A stretch of DNA of 64,000 bases from NCBI GenBank assembly GCA_020848035.1, contig JADLAX010000004.1, forward strand, positions 20,444-84,443, written 5' to 3'. Within the stretch, counting starts at the first letter, position 1. Each line of letters opens with the position of its first letter. Below the pieces are notes generated by a model. It had not been told where the DNA came from and did not search any database. It saw only the letters and a program-made list of their open reading frames with translations. The DNA is from Anaerolineae bacterium (GTDB lineage Bacteria; Chloroflexota; Anaerolineae; Promineifilales; Promineifilaceae). The translations under genes were made by a program, and so were the position numbers. Positions 957 through 63,434 of this stretch are shown here, piece by piece.

Positions 957-2384
957 ATGCCAAATCACATCCTAAAAACACCAACCGGAATTCGAGGCCT
1001 GGACGAAGTGCTCAACGGGGGCGTTCCGTCGGGCGGACTGACGCTGCTAAGCGGTGGTCCGGGAACTGGCAAAACGCTGTTTGGTCTGGAATTTATCGTT
1101 CGGGGGGCGTTAAACGGCCGTCCCGGTATCCTCCTCACTTTTGAAGAACGGGAACAGGCGCTGCACCGGTACGCCAGTATGTTTGGTTGGGATACGGTAA
1201 CTCTGGAGCAGCAAGGTCTGCTGGCGCTGATTGGGGCGCGGTTCGACCCGGATGCGATCCTGTCGGGCGACTTTGACCTGGGCAGCATTCTGGCCATCTT
1301 ACGCCACAAAACGGCCGCTATGCAGTCTAAACAGCTCGTCATTGACGCCCCAGATGTGTTTTTACGCCTGCTGGACAACCGAAGCAAAGAACGCACGGAA
1401 CTATATCGGCTGCAAAACTGGCTGCGCGATAATAATCAAACGGCCGTGATGACCGTTAAAGTCCACGAAGATGATCTGTCTAACTCCTACCGTGAATTTT
1501 TAGACTACATGGCCGACTGCGTTATTCAGCTGGACGAACGGGTCAATGAACAGGTGACCACCCGACGGATTCGTGTGGTGAAGTATCGTGGCTCGGTACA
1601 CGGCCGTAATGAATACCCCTTCGCCCTCACTAACCAGGGTGTCTGGATCATTCCCGTTACCGCCACCAGTCTTACCCACACCGGGCTTGGTGAGCCGGTT
1701 TCCAGCGGTGTCGCCGGGCTGGATGTGCTGTTGGGCGGTGGCTATCGCCGCGGCTCGTGCACGTTAATTGCCGGTACTTCGGGCACGGGCAAAACCACCT
1801 TTGCCGCCACTTTCACCCGCAACGCCACAGCCAACGGCGAACGGGTCTTTTACCTGAACTTTGAAGAATCGATAGACGCCATGCTTTCCTGTATGCTAAG
1901 CCCCGGTATCGACTTGCGCCCGGCACTCAACTCGGGAAACCTGAATTTTGTGTCCGTCATGCCAGAGTCGCAGGGGATCGAAGAACATCTCATCCAGGCA
2001 TTCAAAATCATTGAGCAGTTCCAACCGAGCCTGATCGTTGTTGACGCCATTTCGGCCTGCCGCCGCATGGGTTCAGAACACGCCGCCTTCGATTATTTGC
2101 TCCGCCTGGTTGACCACTGCAAAGGCATGGGCATTACCACCGTCCTCACCAACCTCACCTCCAACACCCGCGAAACGCTGGAAATCACCGGCATGGATCT
2201 GTCATCCATGATTGACACCGTCATCATTTTGCGCAATGCCGAACACGGTGGGCAGTACATCCGCGAACTGGCCATCTTAAAATCGCGGGGGCAATCTCAC
2301 TCAAACAAAGTCCACAAATTTTCGCTCTCGGCACAGGGCATCGAAGTCTTGGGCCTTAATGCGGGGTCTAGGAATGAAAAATAG
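957..2384 (+). CDS. kaiC: KaiC-family double RecA-like ATPase
   Basis: The 475-residue protein has two tandem KaiC/RecA-like ATPase domains, as in circadian KaiC. The first has a Walker A motif GGPGTGKT at residues 33-40 and the paired catalytic glutamates at 63-64. The second has GTSGTGKT at 273-280 and glutamates at 303-304. The segment LSSMIDTV near residue 415 aligns with the KaiC region carrying the Ser431/Thr432 phosphosites, here Ser416-Ser417. The ATG is preceded by GAGGAAAT. The kaiB-like gene overlaps the end by 11 bp. Length is slightly below cyanobacterial KaiC (about 519). No KaiA is present, so a full clock cannot be claimed; a timing or signalling ATPase that passes state to the downstream kinase is plausible. 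Confidence 0.9.
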   Translation: MPNHILKTPTGIRGLDEVLNGGVPSGGLTLLSGGPGTGKTLFGLEFIVRGALNGRPGILLTFEEREQALHRYASMFGWDTVTLEQQGLLALIGARFDPDAILSGDFDLGSILAILRHKTAAMQSKQLVIDAPDVFLRLLDNRSKERTELYRLQNWLRDNNQTAVMTVKVHEDDLSNSYREFLDYMADCVIQLDERVNEQVTTRRIRVVKYRGSVHGRNEYPFALTNQGVWIIPVTATSLTHTGLGEPVSSGVAGLDVLLGGGYRRGSCTLIAGTSGTGKTTFAATFTRNATANGERVFYLNFEESIDAMLSCMLSPGIDLRPALNSGNLNFVSVMPESQGIEEHLIQAFKIIEQFQPSLIVVDAISACRRMGSEHAAFDYLLRLVDHCKGMGITTVLTNLTSNTRETLEITGMDLSSMIDTVIILRNAEHGGQYIRELAILKSRGQSHSNKVHKFSLSAQGIEVLGLNAGSRNEK

Positions 2385-2676
2385 CGATTTCTCCACTGAG
2401 ACGCAGCCAATGAACTATGTGATGCGGCTCTTTATTTCCGATAATGCGGTTAATTCGCGCATTGCCCGCGAGAATCTAAGCAATTTCCTGGCCGAATTCC
2501 CGCAGCACAGCTTTCAAGTTGAGATTGTCGACCTGTACCTTCAGCCAGAGATGGCCCTGCAGAATGGCATTTTTATCACCCCTACGCTGCAAATCCTGGC
2601 CCCACAACCGGGCGGCATCATCTATGGCAATTTGAGTGACCGCAATGCATTGGAGCGCATTTTGCAGATTGGATAA
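2374..2676 (+). CDS. kaiB: KaiB-like thioredoxin-fold protein
   Basis: The 100-residue product matches the KaiB family. It has a YVMRLFISDN strand, a helix with NLSNFL, the IVDLYLQPEMA segment and the conserved ITPTLQILAP / GNLSDR region. KaiB binds KaiC and in cyanobacteria switches fold to sequester KaiA and engage output kinases. The ATG at 2374 is preferred because the preceding frame lies inside kaiC and the KaiB core begins soon after; AGGA precedes it directly. The 11-bp overlap with the KaiC-like gene suggests translational coupling and a joint function. KaiB-like domains also occur in the sensor kinase SasA, but this one is free-standing. Confidence 0.85.
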   Translation: MKNSDFSTETQPMNYVMRLFISDNAVNSRIARENLSNFLAEFPQHSFQVEIVDLYLQPEMALQNGIFITPTLQILAPQPGGIIYGNLSDRNALERILQIG

Positions 2677-2828
2677 TAACGTCCTATAGATGTGCGCCAG
2701 ACGGTAACAGCAGCAACTTTCCTGGGTTTAGGGTGGGCCAAACTGAAAGATTGGCCTGCTCTCAGTGCGCAAACTGAAGACGGTTTATCAGCGCGCCTGA
2801 CAAGGCGTGCTGCCTGAAAAGATGTTCC

Positions 2829-5069
2829 ATGACCACAACAAAACCAACTTACGAAGAATTGGAACAGCGCTGCTCAGTAGCCGAAGGGCAGTTGGCGGCC
2901 ATTCGCGCGGGGCAGGCCGATGCTATTTTAGGTGAGCATGGCCTGTTGGTGCTGCGCCTGGCGGAAGCTGAAGAAAAGGCCCGATACATCAAAAATGTCC
3001 TGTTAACCACACGCAAAGTCAGCCACCTCATTGCCCAGGAGAGCGAGCCGGAAGCTTTGATTAAGGCTGCCTGCGCTGCCCTCACCGCTACGGACGGGTA
3101 TGCGACGGCGTGGATTGCGCTGTACGCACCCGGCACACACGAGGTAACGGCCGTTGCCGCAGCCGGCTTTGAGCTAAATGACGTCGTTTATCAAATCCTG
3201 CAAAACCAACAAAACCCCCCTTTCTGTTTGGCCCGCACTCAGATGCACGACCTTGTGATTTTAGAAGACCCGGCCACCCAATGTGCTGGCTGCCCGCTGG
3301 CTGTTCACAACAACGGCCGTGCCGCCCTGGCCCACAGCCTGACCTTTGACAATCAGCGGTACGGCGTCCTGCTGGTCTACACCCCCCTGCTGTTTGCCAC
3401 CGATGCCGAAGCACAGCGCCTTTTTGCCGGGCTGGCCAACGAACTGGCCTTTGCCCTGCACAAAATGGCGCTGGAAGCACGCCGCCGGGCGACCGAACAA
3501 GAGCTGAAAGAGACACTGGAAGCGCTGCAAACGAGTGAACTTAAGTTACGCACATTGTTCAACCTGCTGCCGGTTGGCGTGTCGGTGGTGGACGAGGCCG
3601 ACCGGGTTCAAGAATCGAATCCGGCGCTGGCAAAAATGCTGGGGCTGCCCCGCCAGGAAGCGACCGCTGCGGCGGACATACCGCCGCAATTCCTGGGAGC
3701 GGACGGGTCGCCTTTGCCGCCCGAAGAGTTCCCCACAAACGTGGCATGGCGTGAACAGCGCAGCATTGAAAACGTTGAGGTGGGGGTTGTGACCCCAGGC
3801 GGCGAAACGGTCTGGATGAATGTGTGTGCTACGCCGGTAGCCTTTGCCGACTGGCGGGTTTTAACGACGGTGAGCGACATCACGCAGCGCAGGCAGGCGG
3901 AAGCCGAACGGGAAGCACTGCGCGCCGAGCTGCTGCAAGTGCAAAAGATGGAATCCATTGGCCGGTTGGCTGGTGGCGTGGCCCATGATTTTAACAACAT
4001 GCTGAGCGTGATTTTGGGCAATACCGAGTTGGCGCTGGCGCGGGTGACGCAGGGTGAAGCCCTGTGGAGCGACCTGCAAGAGATTCACAAAGCCACCCAG
4101 CGCTCGGCCAATCTAACACGCCAGCTGCTGGCTTTTGCCCGCAAACAGGTGATTATGCCGCAGGTGCTGGACTTAAATGAGTCGATTGGGCACATGCTGA
4201 AAATGCTGCAGCGGCTGATTGGCGCTGACATTCACCTGGTTTGCATGCCGGGAACGGCCGTCTGGCCGGTAAACATTGATCCCACGCAAATTGACCAGAT
4301 TTTGGTCAACCTGTGCCTGAACGCTCGCGATGCCATTACCGGGCCGGGCCACATCATCATTGAGACGGCCAACGTCGTCATTACGGCGGAGCACAGCCCA
4401 GGTTATACCGATGTACGCCCTGGGGAATATGTCCAGCTTATCGTGCGCGATGACGGGTGCGGTATGAGCGCTGAGGTAATGGCTAACCTGTTTGAGCCAT
4501 TTTTTACAACCAAAGAGATAGGCAAGGGCACCGGGTTGGGGTTGGCGACGGTGTATGGCATTGTTCGACAAAACGATGGGTTCATCCGTGTGGTTAGCCA
4601 ACCCGGAAAGGGAGCGACATTTTATATTTACCTGCCCCGACACACCGCAGAGGTGAAAGCGCCACCCCAAGAAGTGCCACCAACGGCCGTTGCCTCTGGC
4701 CAGGAAACCATTCTGTTGGCCGAGGATGAACCGGCAATGCTGGAAATTTTGCAAACGATTCTGGAGGGCCAGGGGTACAGGGTGCTGCCCGCCGCTTCTC
4801 CTGCCACAGCGCTGCAAGTGGGCCAGGAATATGCGGGCGAGCTTGACCTGCTGATTACCGACGTGATCATGCCAGAGATGAACGGCCGTGAGCTGGCACA
4901 AAATCTGTTGAACCGAAACACGCGCCTTAAGGTCTTGTTTATGTCGGGGTATACGGCCGATATTCTCACCGATGACGGGGCGCTGGATGATACAATCCAC
5001 TTTATCCAGAAACCTTTTTCGGTCAGCGACCTGGCCAACAAGGTGCGAACGGTGTTGGGAGCCCAATAA
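2829..5069 (+). CDS. Hybrid sensor histidine kinase (GAF-PAS-HisKA-HATPase-REC)
   Basis: This 746-residue protein has no membrane segment and should be cytoplasmic. A short coiled-coil-like start is followed by a GAF domain (about 55-215), a PAS domain (about 235-355), a HisKA helix with the phospho-acceptor His386 in GGVAHDFNN, an HATPase domain (about 490-610) with N box LVNLCLNARDAI and the GKGTGLGLATVYGIV glycine boxes, and a C-terminal receiver with acceptor Asp678 in ITDVIMPEM. The HDFNN form is typical of PAS-associated hybrid kinases. It lies 152 bp after the KaiB-like gene on the same strand, so it may be an output of the KaiC/KaiB pair. No dedicated DNA-binding partner is adjacent. 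A terminator follows. Confidence 0.92.
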   Translation: MTTTKPTYEELEQRCSVAEGQLAAIRAGQADAILGEHGLLVLRLAEAEEKARYIKNVLLTTRKVSHLIAQESEPEALIKAACAALTATDGYATAWIALYAPGTHEVTAVAAAGFELNDVVYQILQNQQNPPFCLARTQMHDLVILEDPATQCAGCPLAVHNNGRAALAHSLTFDNQRYGVLLVYTPLLFATDAEAQRLFAGLANELAFALHKMALEARRRATEQELKETLEALQTSELKLRTLFNLLPVGVSVVDEADRVQESNPALAKMLGLPRQEATAAADIPPQFLGADGSPLPPEEFPTNVAWREQRSIENVEVGVVTPGGETVWMNVCATPVAFADWRVLTTVSDITQRRQAEAEREALRAELLQVQKMESIGRLAGGVAHDFNNMLSVILGNTELALARVTQGEALWSDLQEIHKATQRSANLTRQLLAFARKQVIMPQVLDLNESIGHMLKMLQRLIGADIHLVCMPGTAVWPVNIDPTQIDQILVNLCLNARDAITGPGHIIIETANVVITAEHSPGYTDVRPGEYVQLIVRDDGCGMSAEVMANLFEPFFTTKEIGKGTGLGLATVYGIVRQNDGFIRVVSQPGKGATFYIYLPRHTAEVKAPPQEVPPTAVASGQETILLAEDEPAMLEILQTILEGQGYRVLPAASPATALQVGQEYAGELDLLITDVIMPEMNGRELAQNLLNRNTRLKVLFMSGYTADILTDDGALDDTIHFIQKPFSVSDLANKVRTVLGAQ

Positions 5070-5113
5070 TCCTGCGAAAACTTGGTGGGGAAATGTTGTG
5101 TCCTTCGGGCGTT

Positions 5114-5136
5114 GGCCACGTGTGGCCGGGTTTTTT
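5114..5136 (+). terminator. Rho-independent terminator after the hybrid kinase
   Basis: The stem GGCCA (5114-5118) pairs with TGGCC (5123-5127) around a CGTG loop, and is followed by GGG and six T residues (5131-5136). It lies 45 bp past the kinase stop codon and ahead of the tadA promoter. Confidence 0.7.
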
Positions 5137-5169
5137 CGATTCCCGTTCGCTTGCACGGGGCGAGTTTGT

Positions 5170-5175
5170 TATAAT
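5170..5175 (+). promoter_or_regulatory. -10 element TATAAT ahead of tadA
   Basis: A perfect TATAAT ends 9 bases before the GTG at 5185, so transcription would start at or within a few bases of that codon. No good -35 hexamer is seen at 17 bp spacing. If used, the tadA mRNA would be nearly leaderless. Confidence 0.45.
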
Positions 5176-5184
5176 TCCGGCGTT

Positions 5185-5685
5185 GTGGACAAGTTGAACG
5201 TTACAAATCCCGATGAAATCCAGCTGGCACTGGATGAGCAGTGGATGCGGGTGGCGCTGGCACAGGCGGCCAAAGCGGCTGAACTGGGTGAGGTGCCCGT
5301 GGGCGCGGTGGCGGTGTTGGACGGCCGTATCATCGGCCAGGGGTACAACCGCAAGGAAAGCGACCAGGACCCCACGGCTCATGCCGAGATGATTGCCCTG
5401 AAGGAAACGGCCGTAGCGGTGCAGAACTGGCGGCTGCTTGGCGTGACGCTCTACTGCACGTTGGAGCCCTGCCCCATGTGTGCCGGCGCGATGATCCAGG
5501 CCCGGCTGCCGCGATTGGTCTATGGGGCAAAGGACGTGCGCTTTGGGGCGCATGGCTCCATCGTCAACGTGCTGGATGAAACGCGCTTTAATCATCGTGT
5601 CAGCATCACCAGCGGCGTGCTGGAAGCGGAAGCAGCGGATTTGTTGCAGCAGTTCTTTCAAATGCTTAGAAACGGTAAGCGGTAA
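5185..5685 (+). CDS. tadA: tRNA-specific adenosine deaminase
   Basis: TadA deaminates adenosine 34 of the tRNA-Arg(ACG) anticodon to inosine. The zinc site is clear: His66-Ala-Glu68, with Glu68 as the catalytic proton shuttle, and PCPMC with Cys96 and Cys99. The GTG at 5185 is preferred to the ATG at 5245 because the family's conserved first helix (DEQWMRVALAQA) begins upstream of that ATG. The product is then 166 residues, a normal length. There is no clear ribosome binding site, consistent with the TATAAT lying only 9 bases upstream. The tRNA-Ser gene follows 16 bp after the stop. Confidence 0.93.
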   Translation: MDKLNVTNPDEIQLALDEQWMRVALAQAAKAAELGEVPVGAVAVLDGRIIGQGYNRKESDQDPTAHAEMIALKETAVAVQNWRLLGVTLYCTLEPCPMCAGAMIQARLPRLVYGAKDVRFGAHGSIVNVLDETRFNHRVSITSGVLEAEAADLLQQFFQMLRNGKR

Positions 5686-5701
5686 ACCATTTACCGAACA
5701 C

Positions 5702-5787
5702 GGAGAGGTGCCAGAGTGGACGATTGGGGTGCTCTCGAAAAGCACTGTGGCCTTCGGTCACCGTGGGTTCGAATCCCACCCTCTCCG
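5702..5787 (+). tRNA. tRNA-Ser (CGA anticodon)
   Basis: The acceptor arm GGAGAGG pairs with CCTCTCC and is followed by discriminator G. The anticodon stem GTGCT/AGCAC encloses loop CTCGAAA, giving anticodon CGA, which reads UCG. A long class II variable arm and a T arm (GTGGG TTCGAAT CCCAC) complete a serine tRNA of about 86 nt. The CCA end is not encoded; GCCTTA follows. Confidence 0.95.
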
Positions 5788-5793
5788 CCTTAA

Positions 5794-5822
5794 GAGGACA
5801 TCCGCAGGGATGTCCTTTTTTT
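5794..5822 (+). terminator. Strong terminator after tRNA-Ser
   Basis: AGGACATCC (5795-5803) and GGATGTCCT (5808-5816) form a perfect 9-bp stem with loop GCAG, followed by a run of T residues. It closes the tadA-tRNA unit. Confidence 0.9.
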
Positions 5823-5889
5823 ATTTCTGGCGTAATGTTTTGCCTGGTCATCCCATCCAACAAAAGAGAAACCACTGTGGGAGATAATC

Positions 5890-6429
5890 ATGAACGAGCT
5901 CACTCAATTTAGGAACGAAATCGATCAATTTATGCAGTTTCATCCGCAGTCACCGCTGGATGAGGCGCAGCGGGAAGCGTTTAACGGTCTGGCGTATTAC
6001 GACTTCAACGAAGCGCTGGTGATGGTTTTACCTGTGGCGCAGTTTCCGGCCAGCGAGCCGATGGTGGAGATGGAGACAAGCACAGGGGATGTACGGCCGT
6101 ATCGCCGTTGGGGCCGCATTACGTTTGCGGTGGACGGGGAACCGGCCAGCCTGACAATCTACAGCGACATCTACGGGCGCGAGTTCTTTTTGCCGTTCCG
6201 CGATGCCACCAGCGGCACCGAGACGTACGGCGCGGGGCGATACCTGGATAATCATCGGCCGGGGTTGTGGGATTTGGGCAACGGCCGTGTCAAAATCGAT
6301 CTAAACTTTGCCTACAACCCTTACTGCGCCTACAACCCCTACTACAGCTGTCCGCTGCCACCCCGAGAAAATTGGCTCGCCGTTCCGATTCGTGCGGGCG
6401 AGAAGAACTTTGATCATGATCCTGTCTAA
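5890..6429 (+). CDS. DUF1684 family protein
   Basis: The 179-residue protein matches DUF1684. Its C-terminal half carries the family signature: FRDATSGTETYGAGRYL, then an IDLNFAYNPYCAYNP segment with Asn, Tyr and Cys residues, then CPLPPRENWL and IRAGEK. The biochemical role of the family is not established. There is no signal peptide or membrane helix. GGGAG lies 8 bases before the ATG. The gene stands alone between a tRNA terminator and a degraded transposase fragment that converges on it and overlaps its end by 4 bp. Confidence 0.85.
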   Translation: MNELTQFRNEIDQFMQFHPQSPLDEAQREAFNGLAYYDFNEALVMVLPVAQFPASEPMVEMETSTGDVRPYRRWGRITFAVDGEPASLTIYSDIYGREFFLPFRDATSGTETYGAGRYLDNHRPGLWDLGNGRVKIDLNFAYNPYCAYNPYYSCPLPPRENWLAVPIRAGEKNFDHDPV

Positions 6430-6616
6430 TAATGACTAGACCTAACGTTTTTTTGCTGGCGCTTCCATTTGTTGAGCAGACCATACGTGACGCCGCGTTC
6501 TCGGTCAATTTCCAGCGCACTTTTACCGTTTGTTTCCCACAAGCGCACCGCTTCTTGCTTAAATTCTGCGTTTTCTTTACGTCTACTTTTTTAGGGGAAG
6601 AGCCGAGCTGCCGCAT
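6426..6616 (-). pseudogene. IS3-family OrfA fragment (degraded)
   Basis: Read on the minus strand from about 6590, one frame gives a typical N-terminal helix-turn-helix of IS3-type OrfA: EFKQEAVRLWETNGKSALEI, then RERGVTYGLLNKWKRQQ. A TAA stop directly precedes this frame. The likely ATG (6614-6616) lies in another frame, and a run of six A residues (minus strand) sits at the junction, so a frameshift has broken the gene. The frame stops at 6426 after only the first helices; the rest of OrfA, OrfB and recognisable terminal repeats are missing. The AT-rich remainder up to 6820 shows no gene. It is a relic of past insertion. Confidence 0.75.
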
Positions 6617-6820
6617 CTGAAAAAAAAGATTCTTTGCATAATTGTGAATTAGGTTAATATTGTCCGCGGAAGTTAACAAATGCAAATCACGCTGTAGCTT
6701 TAAAGCAAACCCGCCTGATTTACTCTAAAACCTAACTAGTGATTGACCAACGTCTGTTTTTGGGGATTTGCAAACTTCTGTGGGGCGCGCCGAACTTAGA
6801 GTCGTTTTCTGTTTCGGTTT

Positions 6821-7894: not shown

Positions 7895-8163
7895 ACAGCT
7901 TTATTTAACAGCAAGACGATAGGCATCACAGTCTCAATTCCCCCACTTATTCCTATCGTCTAAAAACTTACATCGTAGTCTAACATCAAGAAAAAGCCTG
8001 GGAGGTCGATTACGACGTTCGATCGGCTCGCCTTAATACCTGTCCGAATATTCGCCACAGCGTTCACAGAGAGCTAAGAGGCGAAGGTTCATTGCTCATA
8101 TTTCTCTTTTGTCTCTGTGGCTTTTTCGGATAGGTTCTTAATGAAAGGAGTGCAAGTTTTAGG
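7895..8163 (+). promoter_or_regulatory. Structured leader ahead of the glycan cluster
   Basis: This intergenic region can fold into a nested hairpin. ACCTGTCCGAA (8038-8048) pairs with TTCGGATAGGT (8125-8135) with one G.U pair, and inside it CACAGAGA (8065-8072) pairs with TCTCTGTG (8112-8119). The structure ends 28 bases before the GT2 start. It could be an attenuator, an RNA-processing site or a dispersed palindromic repeat. I recognise no known riboswitch. Confidence 0.4.
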
Positions 8164-44771: not shown

Positions 44772-45434
44772 TCACGATTCGGGGGGAACGAGAAAATCGG
44801 CAGCGACCCAGCCTACCAGCCCTGTTTCGGTTTGCACCTGCTGCCAGAGCAGCCCATCGGCCGTTTCCTGAGCCTCTAGCAAGTTAAGCACGGTGCCATC
44901 GAGCAGCCACTCCAGCTGTTCGCCGCTGGTGCTGGGCGTGGCCCGTAGCCACACACCAACGCCACTGCTGACAACGGCCGTATCCCCCGCTGGCTCTGGG
45001 GTATTGCTGGGAACGGCCGTAGGCGCATCCGTCTCGCTGGGGGCTGTCGTGGGCAGTGGTGAAGGATCTTGCGGTGCAACTTCAACGGTGGGCGTGCTCA
45101 CCTGAACTTCAGGCAGATCGACAGGGGTCAGTGTCGGCTGGGGGGTGGGGCTTTCGGTGGCTTCCAGCAGCGCCGGTTCGGTGGGCGAAATAAGCGGTTC
45201 AACCGGGCGCGGCGTCAGGCCAAACGCGCCCAAAAAGATGAGAGCCACCACAATCGCCGCCAGGGCGCGAATTAAATCGATCTGCACCGCCTGGCGCGCC
45301 TGCTGGCGACCCACGTTGTAAGCATACTCGGTTGACTGTCCACGACGGACAACCGCTCGCCCCCCAAAAAATAACGCTGCCAAAACGGCCACTGCGGCCA
45401 CTCCGGCAAAGACAATGTTCAATACGGCCGTCAC
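44772..45434 (-). CDS. Membrane protein with SH3b-type domain
   Basis: The 220-residue protein starts at a GTG (45434), with GGAAGGAGG upstream. It has two transmembrane helices (about 5-25 and 57-75), a Pro/Thr/Ser-rich linker of about 75 residues and a C-terminal bacterial SH3-like domain (GVWLRATPSTSGEQLEWLLD, then LLWQQVQTETGLVGWVAADF). Such domains bind cell-wall peptides. It may be a wall-associated sensor or anchor; there is no enzyme domain. It lies 69 bp downstream of mazG on the same strand. Confidence 0.75.
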   Translation of the reverse strand: MTAVLNIVFAGVAAVAVLAALFFGGRAVVRRGQSTEYAYNVGRQQARQAVQIDLIRALAAIVVALIFLGAFGLTPRPVEPLISPTEPALLEATESPTPQPTLTPVDLPEVQVSTPTVEVAPQDPSPLPTTAPSETDAPTAVPSNTPEPAGDTAVVSSGVGVWLRATPSTSGEQLEWLLDGTVLNLLEAQETADGLLWQQVQTETGLVGWVAADFLVPPES

Positions 45435-52157: not shown

Positions 52158-52739
52158 TTAATTTAACATCTCTTGCCGAATGACGGCCGTTAGATCGGCG
52201 CTCACTTCATCTATGGACTGCTCGCCATTTACTTTGACCAGCAGACCACGATTCTCGTAATAATCGAGCAGTGGTGCCGTCTCCGACTCATACACCTGCA
52301 TCCGGGTGCGAATGGTCTCTTCGTTATCGTCGGCACGACCCTCAATCTCAGCCCGTTTGGCCAGCCGCTTTACCAACACTTCCTGAGCCACATGAATATA
52401 AGGGACCACCGCAATTTTAGCGCCAAACTCTTGCAAAAGTTCGTCCAGTGCCTCAGCCTGGGCCAGGGTGCGGGGAAATCCATCGAGGATTGCCCCGGCT
52501 TCACAGTCTGGCTGCGACAACCGGTCTCGCACCATCGCAATGGTCACCTCATTGGGCACCAGCTCACCTTTGTCCATGTAGGTCCGGGCCAGCTTGCCAA
52601 GTTCGGTCTGATTTTTTAAGTTTGCTCGAAATAAATCGCCTGTTGCTACCTGTGGCAGCCCCAGCAAGGCTTCCAGACGTTTTGCCTGGGTTCCCTTACC
52701 GGCTCCGGGAGCGCCCATTAAGACAACAAAGGTTTTCAT
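52158..52739 (-). CDS. adk: Adenylate kinase
   Basis: Adk interconverts ATP and AMP with two ADP. The 193-residue enzyme has the P-loop GAPGAGKGTQAKRLE, the AMP-site ATGDLFR and GAILDGFPRTLAQAEAL, and KRLAKRAEIEGR. It is the short-lid form without the zinc-binding lid of many Gram-positive enzymes. Its ATG overlaps the secY stop by one base (TAATG), so the two are coupled. Confidence 0.96.
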   Translation of the reverse strand: MKTFVVLMGAPGAGKGTQAKRLEALLGLPQVATGDLFRANLKNQTELGKLARTYMDKGELVPNEVTIAMVRDRLSQPDCEAGAILDGFPRTLAQAEALDELLQEFGAKIAVVPYIHVAQEVLVKRLAKRAEIEGRADDNEETIRTRMQVYESETAPLLDYYENRGLLVKVNGEQSIDEVSADLTAVIRQEMLN

Positions 52740-54115
52740 TAGAAGAAGCCCTCGTACTGACGCATGAGCAGCTGCGATTCCAGCTGGCGCATCGTGTCAA
52801 TGACTACACCAACCACAATGATCAACCCTGAACCACTAATCACCAGCGTGCTTTGCTCGATGCCAGGAATGTTCAAAATCACGCCCAACAACTGCATGAT
52901 ACCGGGCAAAACCGCGATAACACCCAGGAAAACAGCGCCAGCAAAGGTGATGCGACGCACCACTTTGGTGATGTAGTCCTCGGTCCGCTTGCCCGGACGA
53001 ATCCCCGGAATGAAGCCACCCTGCCGCTGCAACGTCTGCGGAATGTTTTGTTGGCGCACCATCACGTCGGTGTAGAAGAAGGTGAAGCCAACCACCAGGA
53101 TGAAGAAGAACAGCCAGTAAAGTGTAAAGCCAATTGGTGCTACGGAAGGGTCGGCATTACCAAAGCGGCTAACGGCCGTTGCCACCGTATCAATAAAACC
53201 GCCATTGCCACTGATGAACAAACCAGCCAATACCGACGGGAAAATCAGGATCGAGTTAGCGAAGATGATCGGGATCATCCCGGCGGTATTTACCTTCAGC
53301 GGCACATAGCTGCTTTGCCCCTGGTATACTTTACGGCCGCGTACACGACGGCCGTATTGCACTGGTATTCGCCGTTGTCCTTCTTGCACAATGACAATGA
53401 CAAAAATGGTTAACACCGTAATCAGCAGAAAAGCCACAATGGTAAAGATGCGCGCCGTCACGTCATCCAGAGAAAACAAACCAGCAATACCGGGCAAGAT
53501 TTGGGCCACAATGCCGCCAAAGATGATCAGGGAAATACCTTGACCAATCCCATCTTCCGTAATCAGTTCGCCCATCCAAATGGCAAACATCGTGCCACCC
53601 ATCATCGCCAGTAAGGTCGTAAACGTGGGCAGAAGCTGCTCAGGCGCAAAACCAAAGTTCGGCATAATTTGGGCCAGACCATCAGCACCACCGGCACCCA
53701 GGCTAAAGCCAACGAGCCGAATTTGACCAATCGCCTGAAGCAAAGACAACGGCACAGTCAAAAAGTAAGTAAGGCGGTTTTTCCGGTTCCGCCCAGATTC
53801 GCCTTCAGAATCCATTTCCTGCAACTGCGGGATAATGGGTGTCAGCAGCTGGATGATAATCGACGCCGTGATGTAGGGATACACACCCATAGCCATCACG
53901 GAGAAGTTCCGCACAGCGCCACCCGACAGCAAATCTAGAAAATTAACAACCTGATTTGTGGTGCTGCTGTTGGTGAAGGCCAACCAGGCGCTCAGATCCA
54001 CACCCGGAACCGGGATATTGGCTACCAGGCGATAAATGACCAGGATCATCACCGTAAACAGAATTCGGCGACGCAGGTCTGGCAGTGAAAAGGCAGCTCT
54101 CATTGATTCGATCAT
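52739..54115 (-). CDS. secY: Preprotein translocase subunit SecY
   Basis: The 458-residue protein is the pore of the Sec translocon, with ten predicted helices. It has AFSLPDLRRRILFTVMILVI, a plug region LSGGAVRNFSVMAMGVYPYI, and the late cytoplasmic loop GGFIPGIRPGKRTEDYI needed for SecA and ribosome contact. It follows rplO by 53 bp. Confidence 0.97.
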   Translation of the reverse strand: MIESMRAAFSLPDLRRRILFTVMILVIYRLVANIPVPGVDLSAWLAFTNSSTTNQVVNFLDLLSGGAVRNFSVMAMGVYPYITASIIIQLLTPIIPQLQEMDSEGESGRNRKNRLTYFLTVPLSLLQAIGQIRLVGFSLGAGGADGLAQIMPNFGFAPEQLLPTFTTLLAMMGGTMFAIWMGELITEDGIGQGISLIIFGGIVAQILPGIAGLFSLDDVTARIFTIVAFLLITVLTIFVIVIVQEGQRRIPVQYGRRVRGRKVYQGQSSYVPLKVNTAGMIPIIFANSILIFPSVLAGLFISGNGGFIDTVATAVSRFGNADPSVAPIGFTLYWLFFFILVVGFTFFYTDVMVRQQNIPQTLQRQGGFIPGIRPGKRTEDYITKVVRRITFAGAVFLGVIAVLPGIMQLLGVILNIPGIEQSTLVISGSGLIIVVGVVIDTMRQLESQLLMRQYEGFF

Positions 54116-56745: not shown

Positions 56746-56757
56746 GATGCACCACCT

Positions 56758-56940: not shown

Positions 56941-56941
56941 A

Positions 56942-57487: not shown

Positions 57488-57570
57488 AGTTTACCTCCGA
57501 GTTGAGTGGCAGGTTCGCATACGCGCTGCGTACTTAGGCGACCTGGCTCACCGATGGTATATAAAATAAC

Positions 57571-57894: not shown

Positions 57895-57904
57895 GGCTTC
57901 CTCT

Positions 57905-58276
57905 CTATAGCACTTCTGGCGCCAGCGACATGATGCGGCTGTACCCGGCAGGGCGCAGTTCACGCGCCACGGGGCCAAAAATGCGTGTCCCAATCGGGTT
58001 CTTGCTCGCCGGGTCGATGATAACGGCCGCATTGTCATCAAAGCGAATGTAGCTGCCATCGTCGCGCTTGTACTCTTTCTTGGTACGCACAATCACGGCT
58101 TTCACAACGGACCCCTTCTTAACCGAAGAGTTGGGCACCGCTTTTTTAACTGTGGCAGTAACCATGTCACCAACGCTGCCATAGCGGCGAATGGAGCCAC
58201 CCATCACCTGGATGACCAGCAGTTCACGAGCACCAGAATTGTCTGCGACGTTCAAACGACTTTCTTTTTGAATCAT
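57905..58276 (-). CDS. rplN: Ribosomal protein L14
   Basis: The 123-residue interface protein has [40 protein letters not shown] and [13 protein letters not shown]. It starts 12 bp after rpsQ. Confidence 0.97.
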
Positions 58277-58288
58277 GATGCAGTCCTC

Positions 58289-58540
58289 TTATTTTGCTCG
58301 CTCCAAAATGGAGACAACGGCCCACCGCTTGTGACGGCTAATTGGCTTGGATTCAATAATCTCGACCTGATCACCAACGCGGCATTCATTTGCTTCGTCA
58401 TGCGCTTTGTACTTGGTAACCAGGCGCATCACTTTGCCATAAATTGGGTGGCGTTTGGTTGTAGTGACGGTCACAATCACGGTTTTGTCCATCTTGTCGC
58501 TCGTCACAACGCCTTTTAATCGTTTACGCTGCTCTCTCAT
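58289..58540 (-). CDS. rpsQ: Ribosomal protein S17
   Basis: The 83-residue 16S rRNA-binding protein has KRLKGVVTSDKMDKTVIVTV, HPIYGKVMRLVTKYKAHDE and ISRHKRWAVVSILERAK. It is 7 bp after the unusually long L29 gene. Confidence 0.97.
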   Translation of the reverse strand: MREQRKRLKGVVTSDKMDKTVIVTVTTTKRHPIYGKVMRLVTKYKAHDEANECRVGDQVEIIESKPISRHKRWAVVSILERAK

Positions 58541-58547
58541 CGTTTAC

Positions 58548-58976
58548 CTACCCTGCAACCTCAGCGGTTACAACGCGCTGGGATTGGCTTTGCTCCTTGG
58601 CCTGGCGGCGGCCGTGCGGCCGTTTCTTGTTAAGATTCACAAGAGCGGTGCCCAGCTCTTTACCACCTTTTTCCACAAACGTAACCTGCCAACCGCTGTC
58701 TTCGTAGCTGAAGCGCGCCGAAGCTTCCCATTCTTTACCCACGAGGGCTTTGGCCAGGGCAGGGCTGGCAACGGCCGTTTCTATCGCCAGCTGCCGCATG
58801 TTCAAAACGGTTTCCAGCTGCGCAATCTGACGCCGTATCGCCTTCAGCTGCGTATAATCTTCCAGCCGCGCCGAAGCAACCTGGAACCGCAGGTTAAACA
58901 TCTCCTCACGGCTGTTCTCCAGCATCTCCTCCAGCTTGGCGTCACTCATTCCGCGTAATTCAACAATATTTGCCAT
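58548..58976 (-). CDS. rpmC: Ribosomal protein L29 with long C-terminal extension
   Basis: Residues 1-65 are a normal L29 (IVELRGMSDAKLEEMLENSR, then EEMFNLRFQVASARLEDYTQ), which sits by the peptide exit and helps bind trigger factor. The protein then continues to 142 residues, about twice the normal 60-75. The extension has a possible beta-rich piece (EWEASARFSYEDSGWQVTFV) and a basic tail (NKKRPHGRRQAKEQSQSQ). The frame is clean, and the next gene starts 7 bp later, so this is not a read-through artefact. The start overlaps the rplP stop (TAATG). Confidence 0.92.
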   Translation of the reverse strand: MANIVELRGMSDAKLEEMLENSREEMFNLRFQVASARLEDYTQLKAIRRQIAQLETVLNMRQLAIETAVASPALAKALVGKEWEASARFSYEDSGWQVTFVEKGGKELGTALVNLNKKRPHGRRQAKEQSQSQRVVTAEVAG

Positions 58977-59392
58977 TACAACGAATCCTCCCGAGATATG
59001 ATCTGCGTCTTGATGGGCAGCTTATAGCTGGCCAGACGCAGCGCCTCGCGTGCCACGTCATCCGGCACACCGGCAATCTCAAACAGAATGCGGCCAGGTT
59101 TCACCACAGCCACGTAATGGTCCACAGACCCCTTGCCCTTGCCCATACGGGTTTCGGCCGGTTTAGCCGTTACGGGCTTGTCTGGGAAAATACGAATCCA
59201 ATATTTACCGCGCCGCTTGTTGTGGCGTACCACCACACGACGAATCGCTTCAATCTGCCGACTGGTGATCCATCCCGGCTCTAAAGCCTGGATACCATAC
59301 TCACCATTCTGCAAATCAGAACCGCCCTTCGCCATGCCACGCATACGTCCACGGAATTGCTTACGGTATTTTGCTCGTTTTGGCATTAACAT
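58976..59392 (-). CDS. rplP: Ribosomal protein L16
   Basis: The 138-residue protein near the A-site tRNA elbow has [40 protein letters not shown] and [20 protein letters not shown]. It follows rpsC by 55 bp. Confidence 0.97.
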
Positions 59393-59447
59393 AGCTCAAA
59401 CTCCGTCAAAAACTCAGGAAAGCGCTTGCACGCTCCAGAATTTAAGG

Positions 59448-60119
59448 TTACTCACTAATATAGACATCCGTGGCTTCAAATTCGGTCTTTTGCGGCAGGA
59501 TTTCACCCTTATAGACCCACACCTTCACGCCAATCTGGCCAAAGGTAGTCAGAGCCTCGGCAAAACCAAACTGCAGGTCAGCTCGAATTGTGTTGCGCGG
59601 CACACGGCCGTCCCAAAGCTTTTCTTTACGGGCCATTTCAGAACCACCCAAACGGCCGCTTACCTCAATGCGCACGCCCTCAGCACCCTGGCGCATCGCC
59701 TGCTGAATGGCGCGCTTCATCGCCCGGCTGTGCGAAATACGGCGCTGCAGCTGCCCGGCAATATTTTCGGCGATCAGCTGTGCATCGGTGTCTGGCTGAG
59801 AAATCTCTTCAACCTCAACCTTCACCGCTTTGTCAGTCAGATCACGCAGCTTACCACGCAGATCTTTCACCGAACCGCCCTTGCGCCCAATCACAATACC
59901 AGGACGAGCCGTATGAATGGTCACCTGAACCTGATTGGGAAACCGCTCGATCTCCAGCAAAGAAATACCAGCCGAAGGCATCTCCTTCATGATGAGTTTG
60001 CGGATGGCAAAATCCTCATGCAAACGTTCTTCGTACTGCTTCCCTTCTGCAAACCAACGCGTATTCCAATCGCGAATTGATTTTAAACGGAATCCAACAG
60101 GATGTACTTTGCGTCCCAA
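59448..60119 (-). CDS. rpsC: Ribosomal protein S3
   Basis: The 223-residue mRNA-entry protein has GRKVHPVGFRLKSIRDWNTR, the KH domain IHTARPGIVIGRKGGSVKDL and RIEVSGRLGGSEMARKEKLW. It follows rplV by 63 bp. Confidence 0.97.
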   Translation of the reverse strand: MGRKVHPVGFRLKSIRDWNTRWFAEGKQYEERLHEDFAIRKLIMKEMPSAGISLLEIERFPNQVQVTIHTARPGIVIGRKGGSVKDLRGKLRDLTDKAVKVEVEEISQPDTDAQLIAENIAGQLQRRISHSRAMKRAIQQAMRQGAEGVRIEVSGRLGGSEMARKEKLWDGRVPRNTIRADLQFGFAEALTTFGQIGVKVWVYKGEILPQKTEFEATDVYISE

Positions 60120-60182
60120 GACTAATCCTCCATACCATCACTAGCACGCCTTCCGACGTCTAACGCTAATGACCGGTTTCTC

Positions 60183-60560
60183 TTAATCACCGTACTCAAC
60201 CACATCCCGTTCAGCCAGCACGACTGTCACATGGGATGACCGCTTAATAATGGGCCGAAAACGGCCGCGTCCAGCAAAACGACCACCATAGGGTGCCTTG
60301 CGATGACGGGGACCATCGTCGGCAAAAATTTGGCTCACAAAAAGCTCATCAGCTTCCAGGCCAAAATTCTGCTCGGCATTGGCCACGGCCGACGCAATCA
60401 ATTTATAGACTGGGCCAGCCGCGCGCTGGGGCATAAAACGCAGCGTATCCAACGCTTCCTGCGCATTTTTACCCCGCACCGCATTCACCACCAAACGCAC
60501 CTTTTGGGGCGTGATCTGTAGGTAACGTAACTTCGCCTTAATCTCAAATGCTTCAGCCAT
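60183..60560 (-). CDS. rplV: Ribosomal protein L22
   Basis: The 125-residue protein lines the exit tunnel. KLRYLQITPQKVRLVVNAVR, ALDTLRFMPQRAA and the hairpin RAPYGGRFAGRGRFRPI-like segment (as KAPYGGRFAGRGRFRPIIKR) identify it. It begins 2 bp after rpsS. Confidence 0.97.
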   Translation of the reverse strand: MAEAFEIKAKLRYLQITPQKVRLVVNAVRGKNAQEALDTLRFMPQRAAGPVYKLIASAVANAEQNFGLEADELFVSQIFADDGPRHRKAPYGGRFAGRGRFRPIIKRSSHVTVVLAERDVVEYGD

Positions 60561-60562
60561 GA

Positions 60563-60844
60563 TTAACGACGCCCCTTCTTCTCAGCTTTGCTGACATGAC
60601 CACGGAACGTCCGTGTGGGCGCAAATTCACCCAGCTTGTGCCCCACCATATTCTCCGTAATATAAATCGGGATATGGCGACGGCCGTCATAGACAGCAAC
60701 TGTATGTCCTACCATCTGCGGGAAAACAGTGCTAGAACGTGACCAGGTACGAATTACCTCACGCTTCTTCGCCGCGTTCAGCACTTCCACCTTCTTCAAC
60801 AGTTTCGGATTAATGTATGGACCTTTCTTTAACGAACGAGACAT
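60563..60844 (-). CDS. rpsS: Ribosomal protein S19
   Basis: The 93-residue 30S head protein has [40 protein letters not shown] and [20 protein letters not shown]. It is 14 bp after rplB. Confidence 0.97.
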
Positions 60845-60858
60845 TTCCTATCTACCTC

Positions 60859-61701
60859 CTACCGACGCTTCTTGCTGCGACGACGGAATATAAACTTATC
60901 CGTAGCCTTATTACGACGGGTCCGCCGGCCCTGTGCCGGTTGACCCCACGGCGTTTTCGGCGCAGCCATACCAATCGGCGAACGGCCTTCACCACCACCA
61001 TGCGGATGATCATTCGGGTTCATTGCCGAACCACGCACGGCCGGACGAATACCAAGGTGACGTTTGCGTCCCGCCTTGCCCAGCTTCACGTTGCCGTGTT
61101 CCACGTTGCCAACCTGGCCAATCGTCGCCAGACACTCTTGAGGCACATACCGCTCTTCGCCCGAAGGCAAACGCAGCGTCACGTAGCGCGGATGATCCTT
61201 GGCCAGCAGCTGAGCTGAGGTACCCGCCGAACGAACCATCTGCGCCCCACGGCCAACCTGAAGCTCAATGTTATGCACCTGCGTACCCAGCGGAATATCC
61301 TGCAAGGGCAGCGCATTACCCGGGCGAATCTCCGAACCAGGGCCACTCATAACCGAGTCACCCACGCGCAGACCCAGCGGCGCAATAATGTACCGTTTCT
61401 CGCCGTCGGCATACACCAGCAGCGCAATACGCGCTGAACGGTTAGGATCATATTCAATTGAACTTACACGAGCTGGAATCCCAAACTTGTCGCGCCGCTT
61501 GAAATCAATCTCACGAAAACGACGCTTGTGGCCACCACCCCGATGGCGGATGGTGATCTTCCCGCGAAAGTTACGGCCGCCTTGCTTTCGCATACCTTTG
61601 GTTAAGCTGCGCTCCGGGGTAACCCGGGTCACTTCTTCAAAGGTTTGCCCACTCATGTCACGGCGACCCGGCGACGTGGGCTTAAAAACTTTAATTGGCA
61701 T
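60859..61701 (-). CDS. rplB: Ribosomal protein L2
   Basis: The 280-residue protein is needed for subunit joining and peptidyl transfer. It has [40 protein letters not shown] sequence (as [20 protein letters not shown]) and the essential [20 protein letters not shown] with its conserved histidines. It follows rplW by 92 bp. Confidence 0.97.
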
Positions 61702-61793
61702 ATTTCCTCCAGAGACGGGCTACAGGCATTTTACCCTCAGGAACAAAACCCTGATAGGTAAATGCCCTCATCCCTGCTCAAAACTTCTAAACG

Positions 61794-62093
61794 CTAAACG
61801 CCCTCAAACAAGTCGATGCTGTCACCGGGCGACAACGTCACAATGGCTTTCTTCCAACCAGCCTTACGCGTGGTCACACGCCGATAACGACGCGCCCGCT
61901 TGGCTGGCATATTCGCTACGCGAATCTGTTCCACGGAAACTTCGGGCCAGGCCAGTTCAATAGCCTGCTTGATTTGCATCTTGTTAGCCCGCGAATCCAC
62001 GACAAACGTATATTGGTTGTACAGGTCCACGTTGTAGCTGCTTTTTTCTGTCACCACCGGGCGACGAATGACTTCACGCCAATGCATCTGCAT
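61794..62093 (-). CDS. rplW: Ribosomal protein L23
   Basis: The 99-residue exit-site protein, the dock for trigger factor and SRP, has IRRPVVTEKSSYNVDLYNQY, VDSRANKMQIKQAIE and an R/K-rich loop. It starts 2 bp after rplD. Confidence 0.96.
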   Translation of the reverse strand: MQMHWREVIRRPVVTEKSSYNVDLYNQYTFVVDSRANKMQIKQAIELAWPEVSVEQIRVANMPAKRARRYRRVTTRKAGWKKAIVTLSPGDSIDLFEGV

Positions 62094-62095
62094 GA

Positions 62096-62761
62096 TTATG
62101 CCTCCTCCCCAGATTCATCAACGTTTTCGAAATCATCTTCTGTGCCCAGGAAGTTGGTCAAGACATCCAGCGCCGCCAGCGGCATCACCAGTGTGTCATA
62201 ACCAAGCAGGTCACGAATATTCAGGTAACTTGCCTGCAGCGCTTTCACGTCGGCCAGATTACGAGTCGATTTCTCAACGTTCTCATTGTGTCCAGGCAAA
62301 AGCACCAGGGCACTTCCATTGGGAACCAGAGTCTGGACAAACTGTTTCATATCGCGCGTTTTGGGCGCATCGAACGTCAGTTCATCTACCAAGATAATGG
62401 CTTCGCTGCCCGCTTTAACGCTCAAAGCCGAGCGCAGGGCCGCCCGACGCATTTTCCGGGGCATTTGTTTGGTGTATTTACGCGGCAGTGGACCGTGTAC
62501 CACACCACCACCCACAAAGATAGGCGCTTTTTTGCTGCCATGCCGGGCGTTGCCGGTACCTTTCTGGCGGTAAGCCTTGGCCCCAGTCCGGTTCACTTCC
62601 GAACGTCCCTTGGCTTTATGCGTACCCAGGCGAGCATTGGCCAGCTGCCGTACTAACGCCTGGTGCATCAGATCACGATTAATCTTTGCTTCAAAAATGC
62701 TAGCGGGAAGGTCTACGCTGTTAACTTCCTTGCCAGCCATGTTGAAAACTGAAACTTTCAT
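62096..62761 (-). CDS. rplD: Ribosomal protein L4
   Basis: The 221-residue protein starts at the ATG at 62761 ([20 protein letters not shown]). The tunnel loop [20 protein letters not shown] and [15 protein letters not shown] are diagnostic. In some bacteria L4 represses the S10 operon; no such leader is in view. It ends in an acidic tail and lies 13 bp after rplC. Confidence 0.96.
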
Positions 62762-62774
62762 CTCAACGCCTCCG

Positions 62775-63434
62775 CTAGCCTTTTGCTGCTTTCCGAATGA
62801 CAACGAGTGCGCCTTTTGCCCCAGGCACTGGCCCTTTAACGGCAATCAGGTTACGCTCGGCGTCAACACGAATCACTTCCAGGTTCTGGGCGGTAAACTG
62901 GTCGTTGCCCATGCGTCCGGGCATACGCTTGCCCTTAAACACGTGGCCGGTACCGGAAGTCCCGCCAATAGAACCAGGCGCCCGCCACCGATCAGACTGG
63001 CCGTGGGTTTTTGAACCACCGCCAAAGCCATATCGTTTAACAGCACCGGCAAAACCTTTACCTTTGGTTTTGCCGCTGACATCTACGCGTTCGCCAATTT
63101 CAAATTGATCGACGGTTAAAGTTTGACCTACTGCGTGTTCGGCTGCATCTTTGGTGCGGAACTCACGCAGGTAGCGCAAGGCTGGAATATTTCGAGCATT
63201 TTTGCGGCCCTTCCCTTTTTTGAGAAGGCCCAAGTGACCCTGTTGGCCCTTAGTCAACCGTTTTTCAACAATTTCGCCAAAACCAATTTGTACGGCCGTA
63301 TATCCGTCCGTCTTCTCAGTTTTAACCTGTGTCACATAGCAGGGTCCGGCCTGGATGATCGTGACCGGTGTAACCTCACCGCTCGCGTCAAAAACCTGGG
63401 CCATACCCACTTTAGTGCCTAGTAATCCTTTCAC
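62775..63434 (-). CDS. rplC: Ribosomal protein L3
   Basis: The 219-residue 50S assembly protein has [20 protein letters not shown], the long central extension [20 protein letters not shown], and [20 protein letters not shown]. It follows rpsJ by 65 bp. Confidence 0.97.

What the first reader, a model, noticed from the sequence alone, without database searches (positions are those of the whole stretch)
1114..63299. A HIP1-like highly iterated palindrome, ACGGCCGT
About 95 perfect copies in 64 kb is far above chance for an octamer. The core CGGCCG with other flanks (for example ACGGCCGC, GCGGCCGT) is also common but less so, which suggests that the full octamer is favoured. It sits in coding and non-coding DNA on both strands and even forms codons 2-4 of the gene starting at 45434. 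Cyanobacterial HIP1 (GCGATCGC) is the best-known comparison; a cause such as a methyltransferase or a repair bias is unknown here.
Basis: partly seen in the sequence, partly recalled or inferred. Interest (0 to 1): 0.75.

Follow-up and report, generated by a model that had tools for sequence, protein, structure and literature searches.

The report
Genome-wide DNA password phages also carry
An eight-letter palindrome, ACGGCCGT, is repeated about 13,000 times in an uncultured Chloroflexota genome, is replaced by sister words in some related lineages, is carried at similar or higher density by some phages, and marks points where the base make-up of the two DNA strands flips; it likely works as a two-way "self" signal that DNA-repair machinery is predicted to read, but no reader protein has been found.

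Summary
ACGGCCGT occurs 95 times in the window (about 4.5 expected) and 12,866 times in the 7.65-Mb genome. The host is an uncultured Chloroflexota near Promineifilum. It is a HIP1-like highly iterated palindrome, outside cyanobacteria.

(1) The core CGGCCG is usually fixed, but the outer base pair is a lineage dialect: A, T (TCGGCCGA) or G (GCGGCCGC). (2) No methyltransferase family fits all: 10 of 21 high-copy genomes show no C5-MTase, three of them only weak N4/N6-MTase matches; Vsr and Dnd do not fit. (3) Phages carry the word: two phage contigs in this assembly at 1.6/kb, IMG/VR stretches with tailed-phage genes at up to 2.7/kb (host 1.8). (4) At chromosomal copies the strand composition flips symmetrically (5' side G-rich, C-poor), strongest at fourfold-degenerate sites, fading over hundreds of bases; absent at HIP-less orthologous sites and nearly absent in phages.

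I propose, as inference, a palindromic Chi-like site read by DNA-end-processing or recombination machinery. Against this: classical readers (AddAB/RecBCD) were not found at full size in this genome, and a small polarised-substitution test did not show ongoing C loss. Binding-protein and repair-drive rivals remain open.

The parts
1114..63299 (.). Array of 95 ACGGCCGT palindromes; starts: 1114, 1440, 1600, 3147, 3313, 4254, 4683, 4882, 5321, 5407, 6093, 6281, 8826, 8988, 9183, 9377, 10482, 11962, 13166, 14185, 14491, 14782, 15028, 15542, 16203, 16426, 16523, 16690, 17074, 17261, 17717, 17828, 18158, 18937, 21385, 22152, 22691, 22982, 23335, 23521, 25890, 26517, 29261, 29822, 30355, 30368, 31168, 31186, 31614, 32725, 32929, 33023, 33787, 34936, 35137, 35222, 35830, 36356, 36432, 36919, 37141, 37504, 37529, 38154, 38671, 39231, 39314, 39845, 42102, 42600, 43681, 43870, 44210, 44974, 45013, 45424, 45739, 46414, 46567, 46905, 49185, 50099, 50444, 51405, 51422, 52183, 53172, 53348, 55453, 56158, 57110, 58771, 59604, 60680, 63292
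1114..1121 (.). first perfect copy, inside the KaiC-like ORF 957-2384
45424..45431 (-). copy forming codons 2-4 (ACG GCC GTA) of the ORF 44772-45434 on the minus strand, GTG start at 45434
52739..54115 (-). secY, used to place the organism and to align relatives; holds the copies at 53172 and 53348
63292..63299 (.). last perfect copy

Best explanation
ACGGCCGT is a genome-wide highly iterated palindrome that likely works as a palindromic, two-way Chi-like recognition site: host DNA-end-processing or recombination machinery is predicted to read it and act outward on the strand that lies 5' of it, and phages carry the same word, likely to pass as self. SHOWN: the over-representation, the dialects (outer base pair A, T or G on a CGGCCG core), the strong conservation of single copies, the host-like or higher density in some phages, and a strand-composition flip centred on chromosomal copies that is missing at HIP-less orthologous sites. 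INFERRED: that the flip records recurrent strand-specific handling of DNA at the site (single-stranded exposure, or selection for a G-rich, C-poor 3'-ended strand favourable to RecA); that phages gain by being spared or repaired; that the dialect follows an evolving reader protein. The Chi analogy itself is not new: Elhai (2015) raised it for methylated HIP1 and noted that there was no evidence.
For: Over-representation beyond Markov-3 and codon use. Conservation 24/25, 11/15 and 17/25 against 0.45, 0.22 and 0.18 for control octamers. Strand flip: GC skew on the 5'-side strand 0.46 at 3-4 bp, 0.29 at 5-10, 0.17 at 11-20, 0.09 at 21-30, still 0.016 (se 0.004) at 241-400 bp, n=1156 copies, of which 184 lie in phage contigs; TGGCCA control within 0.02 of zero beyond 2 bp. 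At fourfold-degenerate sites inside the same gene the half-difference is 0.52, 0.36, 0.17, 0.09, 0.08, 0.065 out to 300 bp; control 0.06 at 1-10 bp and within 0.025 of zero beyond. The flip is mirror-symmetric in 7 of 8 contig sets of either overall skew sign, so (taking contig skew as a proxy) it does not follow replication direction; the eighth set is a phage contig. It is seen for A, T and G dialects and not at other CGGCCG. It follows HIP presence: 0.112 [0.081, 0.142] at copies missing in a relative, 0.003 [-0.027, 0.033] at the HIP-less orthologue, 0.184 [0.153, 0.213] at shared copies. Phages: contigs C7 and C24 hold 184 copies at 1.62/kb with the same A-1 A-2 G-3 G-4 flank but no broad skew; 27 of 120 viral stretches are HIP-rich (at least 5 copies, over 4 times expectation, over 0.8/kb), 19 of these at or above the host's 1.79/kb; of 14 of these 27 examined, 10 have terminase, portal, protease, tape-measure or tail-spike matches; three T-dialect stretches hold T and no A copies. 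RecA filaments are most stable on TGG repeats and TG-rich DNA surrounds E. coli Chi (PMC3763553, passages).
Against: AddAB/RecBCD-type nuclease (PF12705) in G000, G001 and G003 is only a stand-alone protein of about 280-330 aa; frames over 900 aa occur in 7 of 32 genomes. NurA matches occur in 29 of 32 genomes, HIP-rich or not, and are missing in two HIP-rich ones (G025, G034), so NurA is not the discriminating reader. In a small polarised test near HIPs, C>T on the 5'-side strand was not in excess of G>A (1 v 6 at 1-10 bp; 9 v 15 at 11-30 bp). Enriched flank triplets include GAG, GGA and AGG as well as GGT, GTG and TGG, so the strand is G-rich and C-poor rather than strictly GT-rich. The known Chi words GCTGGTGG and AGCGG are not palindromes. 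Some A-dialect loci show little broad skew (L119 0.03, se 0.05; L125 0.02, se 0.06). In cyanobacterial plasmids the skew around HIP1 is weak (about 0.05 at 5-40 bp, n=321). The broad skew is nearly absent in phages although they carry the word, so word and flip may have different causes.
Confidence: 0.36

Rival explanations
1. The palindrome is the site of an abundant sequence-specific DNA-binding protein (nucleoid or chromosome-organising factor) whose preferred flanks are under selection; phages carry it to be organised, replicated or left unsilenced.
For: Immediate flanks A-1 A-2 G-3 G-4 are shared by host and phage copies, so the recognised motif is longer than 8 bp. Single copies are conserved.
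Against: The skew decays smoothly, is strongest at silent sites, reaches hundreds of bases and is nearly missing from phage copies that keep the near flanks; a footprint would be short and common to both.
Confidence: 0.22
2. Repair drive: a mismatch- or nick-repair system converts near-HIPs into HIPs in any DNA in the cell, so HIPs accumulate without benefit (kin of the mismatch-repair model of Elhai 2015).
For: Core single-base deviants are not enriched in the chromosome even against a masked background (O/E 0.4-1.0), as if decay is corrected; the strand flip could record repair tracts.
Against: Elhai's version needs a site-specific methyltransferase: G003, G005 and G021 have no PF00145 match and no PF01555 match stronger than 9.5e-10, although such weak matches can pass Pfam's cut-off; Vsr in 6 of 39 genomes and not in G000. 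In aligned pairs 227 of 277 non-HIP partner sites differ from the word by two or more bases, so gain or loss is often not a single-step conversion. Some phage stretches exceed host density (2.7/kb in the tape-measure-bearing L333).
Confidence: 0.2
3. Methylation or phosphorothioation mark (orphan methyltransferase or Dnd at GGCC) that labels self DNA.
For: In cyanobacteria abundant HIPs go with methyltransferases (PMC4390886, sections read). G000 has DndC and two C5-MTase matches. Weak PF01555 matches exist even in G003, G005 and G021.
Against: No C5-MTase match in 10 of 21 high-copy family genomes, of which G002, G005, G008 and G031 are 75-83% complete; DndC over cut-off in 4 of 32; the G-dialect word has no adenine, so an m6A mark cannot be general.
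Confidence: 0.12
4. DNA uptake sequence for natural transformation.
For: Dense, conserved and dialect-forming, as uptake sequences are (recalled).
Against: Uptake gives tailed phages no reason to match host density, and does not explain the silent-site strand flip.
Confidence: 0.05
5. Lagging-strand priming or other replication signal.
For: Mean spacing of 546 bp is not far from Okazaki length (recalled).
Against: The flip is mirror-symmetric in contigs of either overall skew sign; a fork-direction effect would be one-sided.
Confidence: 0.03

Closest known systems
HIP1 (GCGATCGC) and alternate HIPs of cyanobacteria (Elhai 2015, PMC4390886)
   Same: GC-rich palindromic octamer, around 1-2 per kb, genic and intergenic, deviations concentrated at positions 1 and 8, replaced by other palindromes in some lineages.
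   Different: Different phylum and word; mostly only the outer base pair varies on a CGGCCG core (plus one GCCGGC-core lineage, G013); no methyltransferase family found in all; broad strand flip and dense phage carriage shown here. [quoted passage not shown]
Chi sites of RecBCD/AddAB
   Same: Over-represented short word, lineage-specific; G-rich, C-poor DNA on the strand 5' of the site recalls the TG-rich DNA reported near E. coli Chi.
   Different: Palindromic, so without direction; no AddAB/RecBCD-size nuclease found in this genome; the skew flips inside single genes, so codon use, the published explanation of the E. coli islands (titles in the reference list of PMC3763553), does not explain it.
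DNA uptake sequences (Neisseriaceae DUS, Pasteurellaceae USS)
   Same: Dense, conserved, with dialects (recalled).
   Different: Those words are not palindromes (recalled); here phages carry the word densely.
Restriction-modification sites
   Same: Short palindrome; CGGCCG is the EagI site and GCGGCCGC the NotI site (recalled).
   Different: Restriction sites tend to be avoided in host and phage (recalled); this one is enriched in both.

Membership tests
Highly iterated palindromes (HIP, sensu Elhai 2015) | GC-rich palindrome grossly over-represented against a Markov model | tested here: met
   95 v 4.4 in the window; 972 v 16.4 in 544 kb of chromosome
Highly iterated palindromes (HIP, sensu Elhai 2015) | density of about 500-2500 per Mb, genome-wide | tested here: met
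   12,866 in 7.65 Mb
Highly iterated palindromes (HIP, sensu Elhai 2015) | deviations concentrated at first and last positions | tested here: met
Highly iterated palindromes (HIP, sensu Elhai 2015) | association with a methyltransferase able to methylate the word (a reported correlate, not part of the definition) | tested here: inconclusive
   No PF00145 match in 10 of 21 high-copy genomes; G003, G005, G021 also have only weak PF01555 matches. Specificities unknown; other MTase families were not searched.
Chi sites | host encodes RecBCD/AddAB/AdnAB-type helicase-nuclease | tested here: not met
   PF12705 in G000 only as a protein of about 290 aa (genome 97% complete)
Chi sites | non-palindromic, oriented word | tested here: not met
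   perfect palindrome
Chi sites | protects DNA ends from degradation and stimulates recombination | not testable with these tools
   needs an experiment
DNA uptake sequences | promotes uptake of conspecific DNA | not testable with these tools
   phage density argues against it
Dnd phosphorothioation sites (GGCC core, recalled) | dnd genes present where the motif is abundant | tested here: not met
   DndC over cut-off in 4 of 32 genomes; no match in G003, G004, G010, G015, G025
Vsr very-short-patch repair | Vsr endonuclease present | tested here: not met
   6 of 39 genomes, not in G000

The most novel reading that the evidence does not exclude
Highly iterated palindromes, here and as HIP1 in cyanobacteria, are bidirectional Chi sites: passwords read from both sides by a still unnamed end-processing machine in bacteria without RecBCD/AddAB, which spares and repairs DNA that speaks the local dialect; phages learn the dialect of their host, and each copy becomes a point where the strand bias of the chromosome flips.
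Probability: 0.2. Interest if true: 0.95.

Novelty: new variant of a known kind. Interest (0 to 1): 0.8.

Why it matters
The purpose of HIP sequences has been open since HIP1 was described in 1995 (date from PMC4390886). This clade gives a natural experiment: dialects differing by one base pair, lineages without the word, genomes without the expected C5-methyltransferases, phages that carry the word, and a strand flip at silent sites that dates from the arrival of each copy. Together these turn "why are they there" into testable questions: which protein binds CGGCCG with an A, T or G outer pair, and does the word protect linear or phage DNA.

Tried and rejected
C5-methyltransferase as cause: PF00145 matches in 19 of 39 genomes. 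N4/N6-MTase PF01555: matches in 36 of 39 at E<=0.001 (34 over Pfam's cut-off), none in G007, G011, G023, and only weak (E from 9.5e-10 to 5e-4) in G001, G003, G005, G021, G032, with 1.1e-7 in G022. Vsr: 6 of 39. DndC: 8 of 32 at E<=0.001, 4 over cut-off. AddAB/RecBCD: not found at full size in G000, G001, G003. NurA: 29 of 32, not discriminating and missing in HIP-rich G025 and G034; HerA was not searched. Extended hairpin: left and right flanks uncorrelated. Codon phase as source of the flip: seen in all three phases and between genes (49 copies), strongest at fourfold sites. Pre-existing skewed context: refuted. Simple cytosine-deamination model: not supported by a small polarised count. Replication-direction effect: not seen. 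TGCCGGCA (alternate word of G013): 6 of 120 viral stretches enriched, at most 1.1/kb. Relatives of the C7 phage terminase: 7 viral loci, 1 HIP in all.

Papers: PMC4390886 named sections and passages (part 1 of 2, 20, 79); PMC5101192 passages; PMC3763553 passages; others as search listings only. PMC3271550 and 10.1093/nar/gky075 are not held.

Full report
WHAT WAS CHECKED. The window holds 95 ACGGCCGT. A third-order Markov model gives 4.4, 100 simulations never exceed 17, and shuffling synonymous codons gives 14.0, maximum 24, against 86 in predicted genes. The genome (G000, 104 contigs, 97% complete, 7% contaminated by the tool's figures) holds 12,866 copies. Of 1,156 copies studied, 1,014 (88%) lie in predicted genes, in all three codon phases (541, 332, 141); the coding share is about 83%. 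Gaps between chromosomal copies are near-exponential (947 gaps, mean 546, CV 0.95) except that gaps under 50 bp are half as common as expected.

WHO IT IS. A SecY scan of named genomes puts the host in Chloroflexota, among MAGs titled Anaerolineae, Ardenticatenaceae and Promineifilum. G001, G002 and G003 appear to be the genomes of L092, L091 and L093 (same sizes and same matches under both handles).

DIALECTS AND LOSSES. In 35 family genomes (G000-G034), 21 carry ACGGCCGT at about 1 per kb or more; the others range from a few tenths per kb to background. Some low genomes have another word: G009 and G033 have TCGGCCGA (68 and 71 in 60 kb each), G016 has GCGGCCGC (54 in 40 kb), and G013 has TGCCGGCA (3,665 in the genome, 22 in 20 kb) with only 2 CGGCCG in 20 kb. 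Of 80 named loci, 25 have ACGGCCGT as top palindrome, three TCGGCCGA, and L130 (with L106, weakly) GCGGCCGC. On a SecY tree of 56 of these 80 loci plus the window, the T group is one side of a branch (100/100), the A label needs six changes, and a clade of seven loci, four of them titled Promineifilum, lacks the word, most simply by loss. The four same-order and 20 same-class genomes are near background.

MAINTENANCE. Against L091 (91% identity) 24 of 25 aligned copies are perfect, control octamers 45%; against L092 and L093 (82%) 11 of 15 and 17 of 25, controls 22% and 18%. Core single-base deviants are not enriched in the chromosome even against a HIP-masked background (O/E 0.4-1.0), nor in phages (0.45-1.1); in T genomes one of nine is (1.65). 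Position-1 deviants are enriched about 1.5-4.5 fold in all three sets, A>C in the chromosome excepted (0.6).

THE STRAND FLIP. Counting both flanks on the strand that lies 5' of the palindrome, G exceeds C strongly next to the site and the excess fades over tens to hundreds of bases (the 1,156 copies include 184 in phage contigs, which dilute it). A at -1 and -2 and G at -3 and -4 look like an extension of the recognised word in A genomes; T and G genomes have other bases at -1. Beyond that the skew is smooth, uncorrelated between flanks, present in genes and between genes, and largest at fourfold sites: half-difference 0.52 at 1-10 bp and still 0.065 at 161-300 bp within the same gene. The control TGGCCA shows 0.06 at 1-10 bp and within 0.025 of zero beyond. 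Other A genomes, T genomes, the G genomes and the G013 word show it; other CGGCCG in the same genomes and CGGCCG in HIP-poor genomes do not. It is mirror-symmetric in seven of eight contig sets, whose overall skew has either sign; the eighth is the phage C7.

ORDER OF EVENTS. In pairwise alignments of the SecY region (26 A loci, pairs of at least 74% identity and 3 kb), 328 copies have a usable partner; 214 are shared with all usable partners and 114 are missing in at least one. Partner sites with a one-base difference, with an indel in the word, or with another HIP within 60 bp were dropped. Skew at 5-30 bp is 0.112 [0.081, 0.142] where the copy is present, 0.003 [-0.027, 0.033] at the orthologous site without it, and 0.184 [0.153, 0.213] at shared copies. 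In nine HIP-poor loci the corresponding sites keep 0.043 against 0.157 in HIP-bearing kin; 82 of 2,075 site pairs there were still intact and are included. So the flip comes after or with the palindrome and looks stronger at older copies. The first, larger tally counts pairs and its standard errors are too small; one search is the fair version. Against a simple deamination reading, polarised substitutions near HIPs in the one 21-kb alignment show G>A, not C>T, slightly ahead; numbers are small.

PHAGES. Two G000 contigs broke the pattern: C7 (101.6 kb) and C24 (48.6 kb, 13.6 kb of it read) have the palindrome at 1.62/kb with the near flanks but no broad skew. They encode a GpA-type terminase, a siphovirus Gp37-like protein, ParB-HTH, DnaA-N and a DnaN clamp (C7), and a T4-type terminase next to an N6/N4 methylase (C24): they are phages or prophages. 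The pair criterion inflates densities of short stretches; C7 and C24 are free of that bias. Of 14 of the 27 whose proteins I examined, 10 have terminase, portal, head-protease, tape-measure or tail-spike matches (L280, L337, L241, L293, L333, L348, L320, L353, L281, L324), at 1.3-2.7/kb. The densest long ones (L250, 49 copies in 13.2 kb; L282, 47 in 13.2 kb; L239, 44 in 14.7 kb) gave no firm virion gene, and L250 has an FtsK-like ATPase, so a plasmid is possible there. Flanks of the 27 show the near motif and little broad skew (0.056 at 5-10 bp, 0.029, 0.015). T-dialect stretches are few (3 of 120; L481 has a portal and L461 a primase-helicase, L446 was not examined), with no A copies. Seven relatives of the C7 terminase carry one copy in all, so the word does not follow the phage lineage. 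HIP1-rich viral stretches also exist: 26 of 118.

READING. Enrichment in phages near or above host level suggests that the word helps DNA in this cytoplasm; a restriction site would be avoided. The chromosomal flip, centred on the word and symmetric whatever the contig's skew, points to a process that starts or stops at the word and treats the two strands differently on its two sides. A palindromic Chi-like site would do both. Elhai raised the Chi analogy for methylated HIP1 without evidence, and PMC5101192 sets HIP1 beside Chi. The classical Chi readers were not found here. NurA, half of the HerA-NurA resection pair, is in 29 of 32 genomes and in the cyanobacterial control genome, but is missing in two HIP-rich drafts. 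Larger cyanobacteria often lack recBCD while the marine picocyanobacteria, where HIP1 is not abundant, have it (PMC5101192, passages; PMC4390886). That contrast is suggestive and untested. Rivals, with weights, are listed separately.

LIMITS. Stretch-based dialect calls used 1.6-60 kb per relative, little for fragmented ones, and two stretches (G002, G021) held no readable bases. MTase families beyond PF00145 and PF01555 were not searched. That the dialects, phage carriage and strand flip are unreported rests on searches of an open-access library only.

Noticed in passing
G000 C7 (L038, L193-L196) and C24 (L039): Two phage or prophage contigs in the assembly; the 101.6-kb one encodes its own DnaA-N-domain protein and a DnaN-like sliding clamp.
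   Followed up: partly
window-wide and L031-L040: Related palindromes are strongly avoided: GCCGGC 27 v 339 expected, GGCGCC 33 v 277, GGGCCC 8 v 121 in 258 kb (expectations partly raised by HIP-derived tetramers), in host and phage contigs alike.
   Followed up: partly
window 793-872, 3930-4040, 4491-4564, 5702-5792, 8032-8147; L181:17640-17700: Short stretches that match several to about two dozen places in G001-G003: dispersed repeats of roughly 60-115 bp.
   Followed up: no
G019, G007, G027: CGGCCG at 6.1, 3.7 and 2.6 per kb in the stretches read, without preference for one outer base pair: perhaps a dialect in transition.
   Followed up: no
L565, L582, L599, L534, L490 and others: IMG/VR viral stretches with the cyanobacterial word HIP1 at 1.8-4.2 per kb, perhaps cyanophages that carry their host's word; hosts not checked.
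   Followed up: partly
L150: A contig titled Pleurocapsa minor (a cyanobacterium) whose SecY groups with Chloroflexota: probably a mislabelled MAG.
   Followed up: no
window 957-2384 and 2829-5069: KaiC-like protein followed by a CckA-like hybrid histidine kinase.
   Followed up: no
L613:1477-2307: Stand-alone PD-(D/E)XK (RecB-family) nuclease of 276 aa beside a CHAT-domain-like ORF and a SAM-dependent methyltransferase-like ORF (neighbour labels by eye); nucleases of similar size recur across the family.
   Followed up: no
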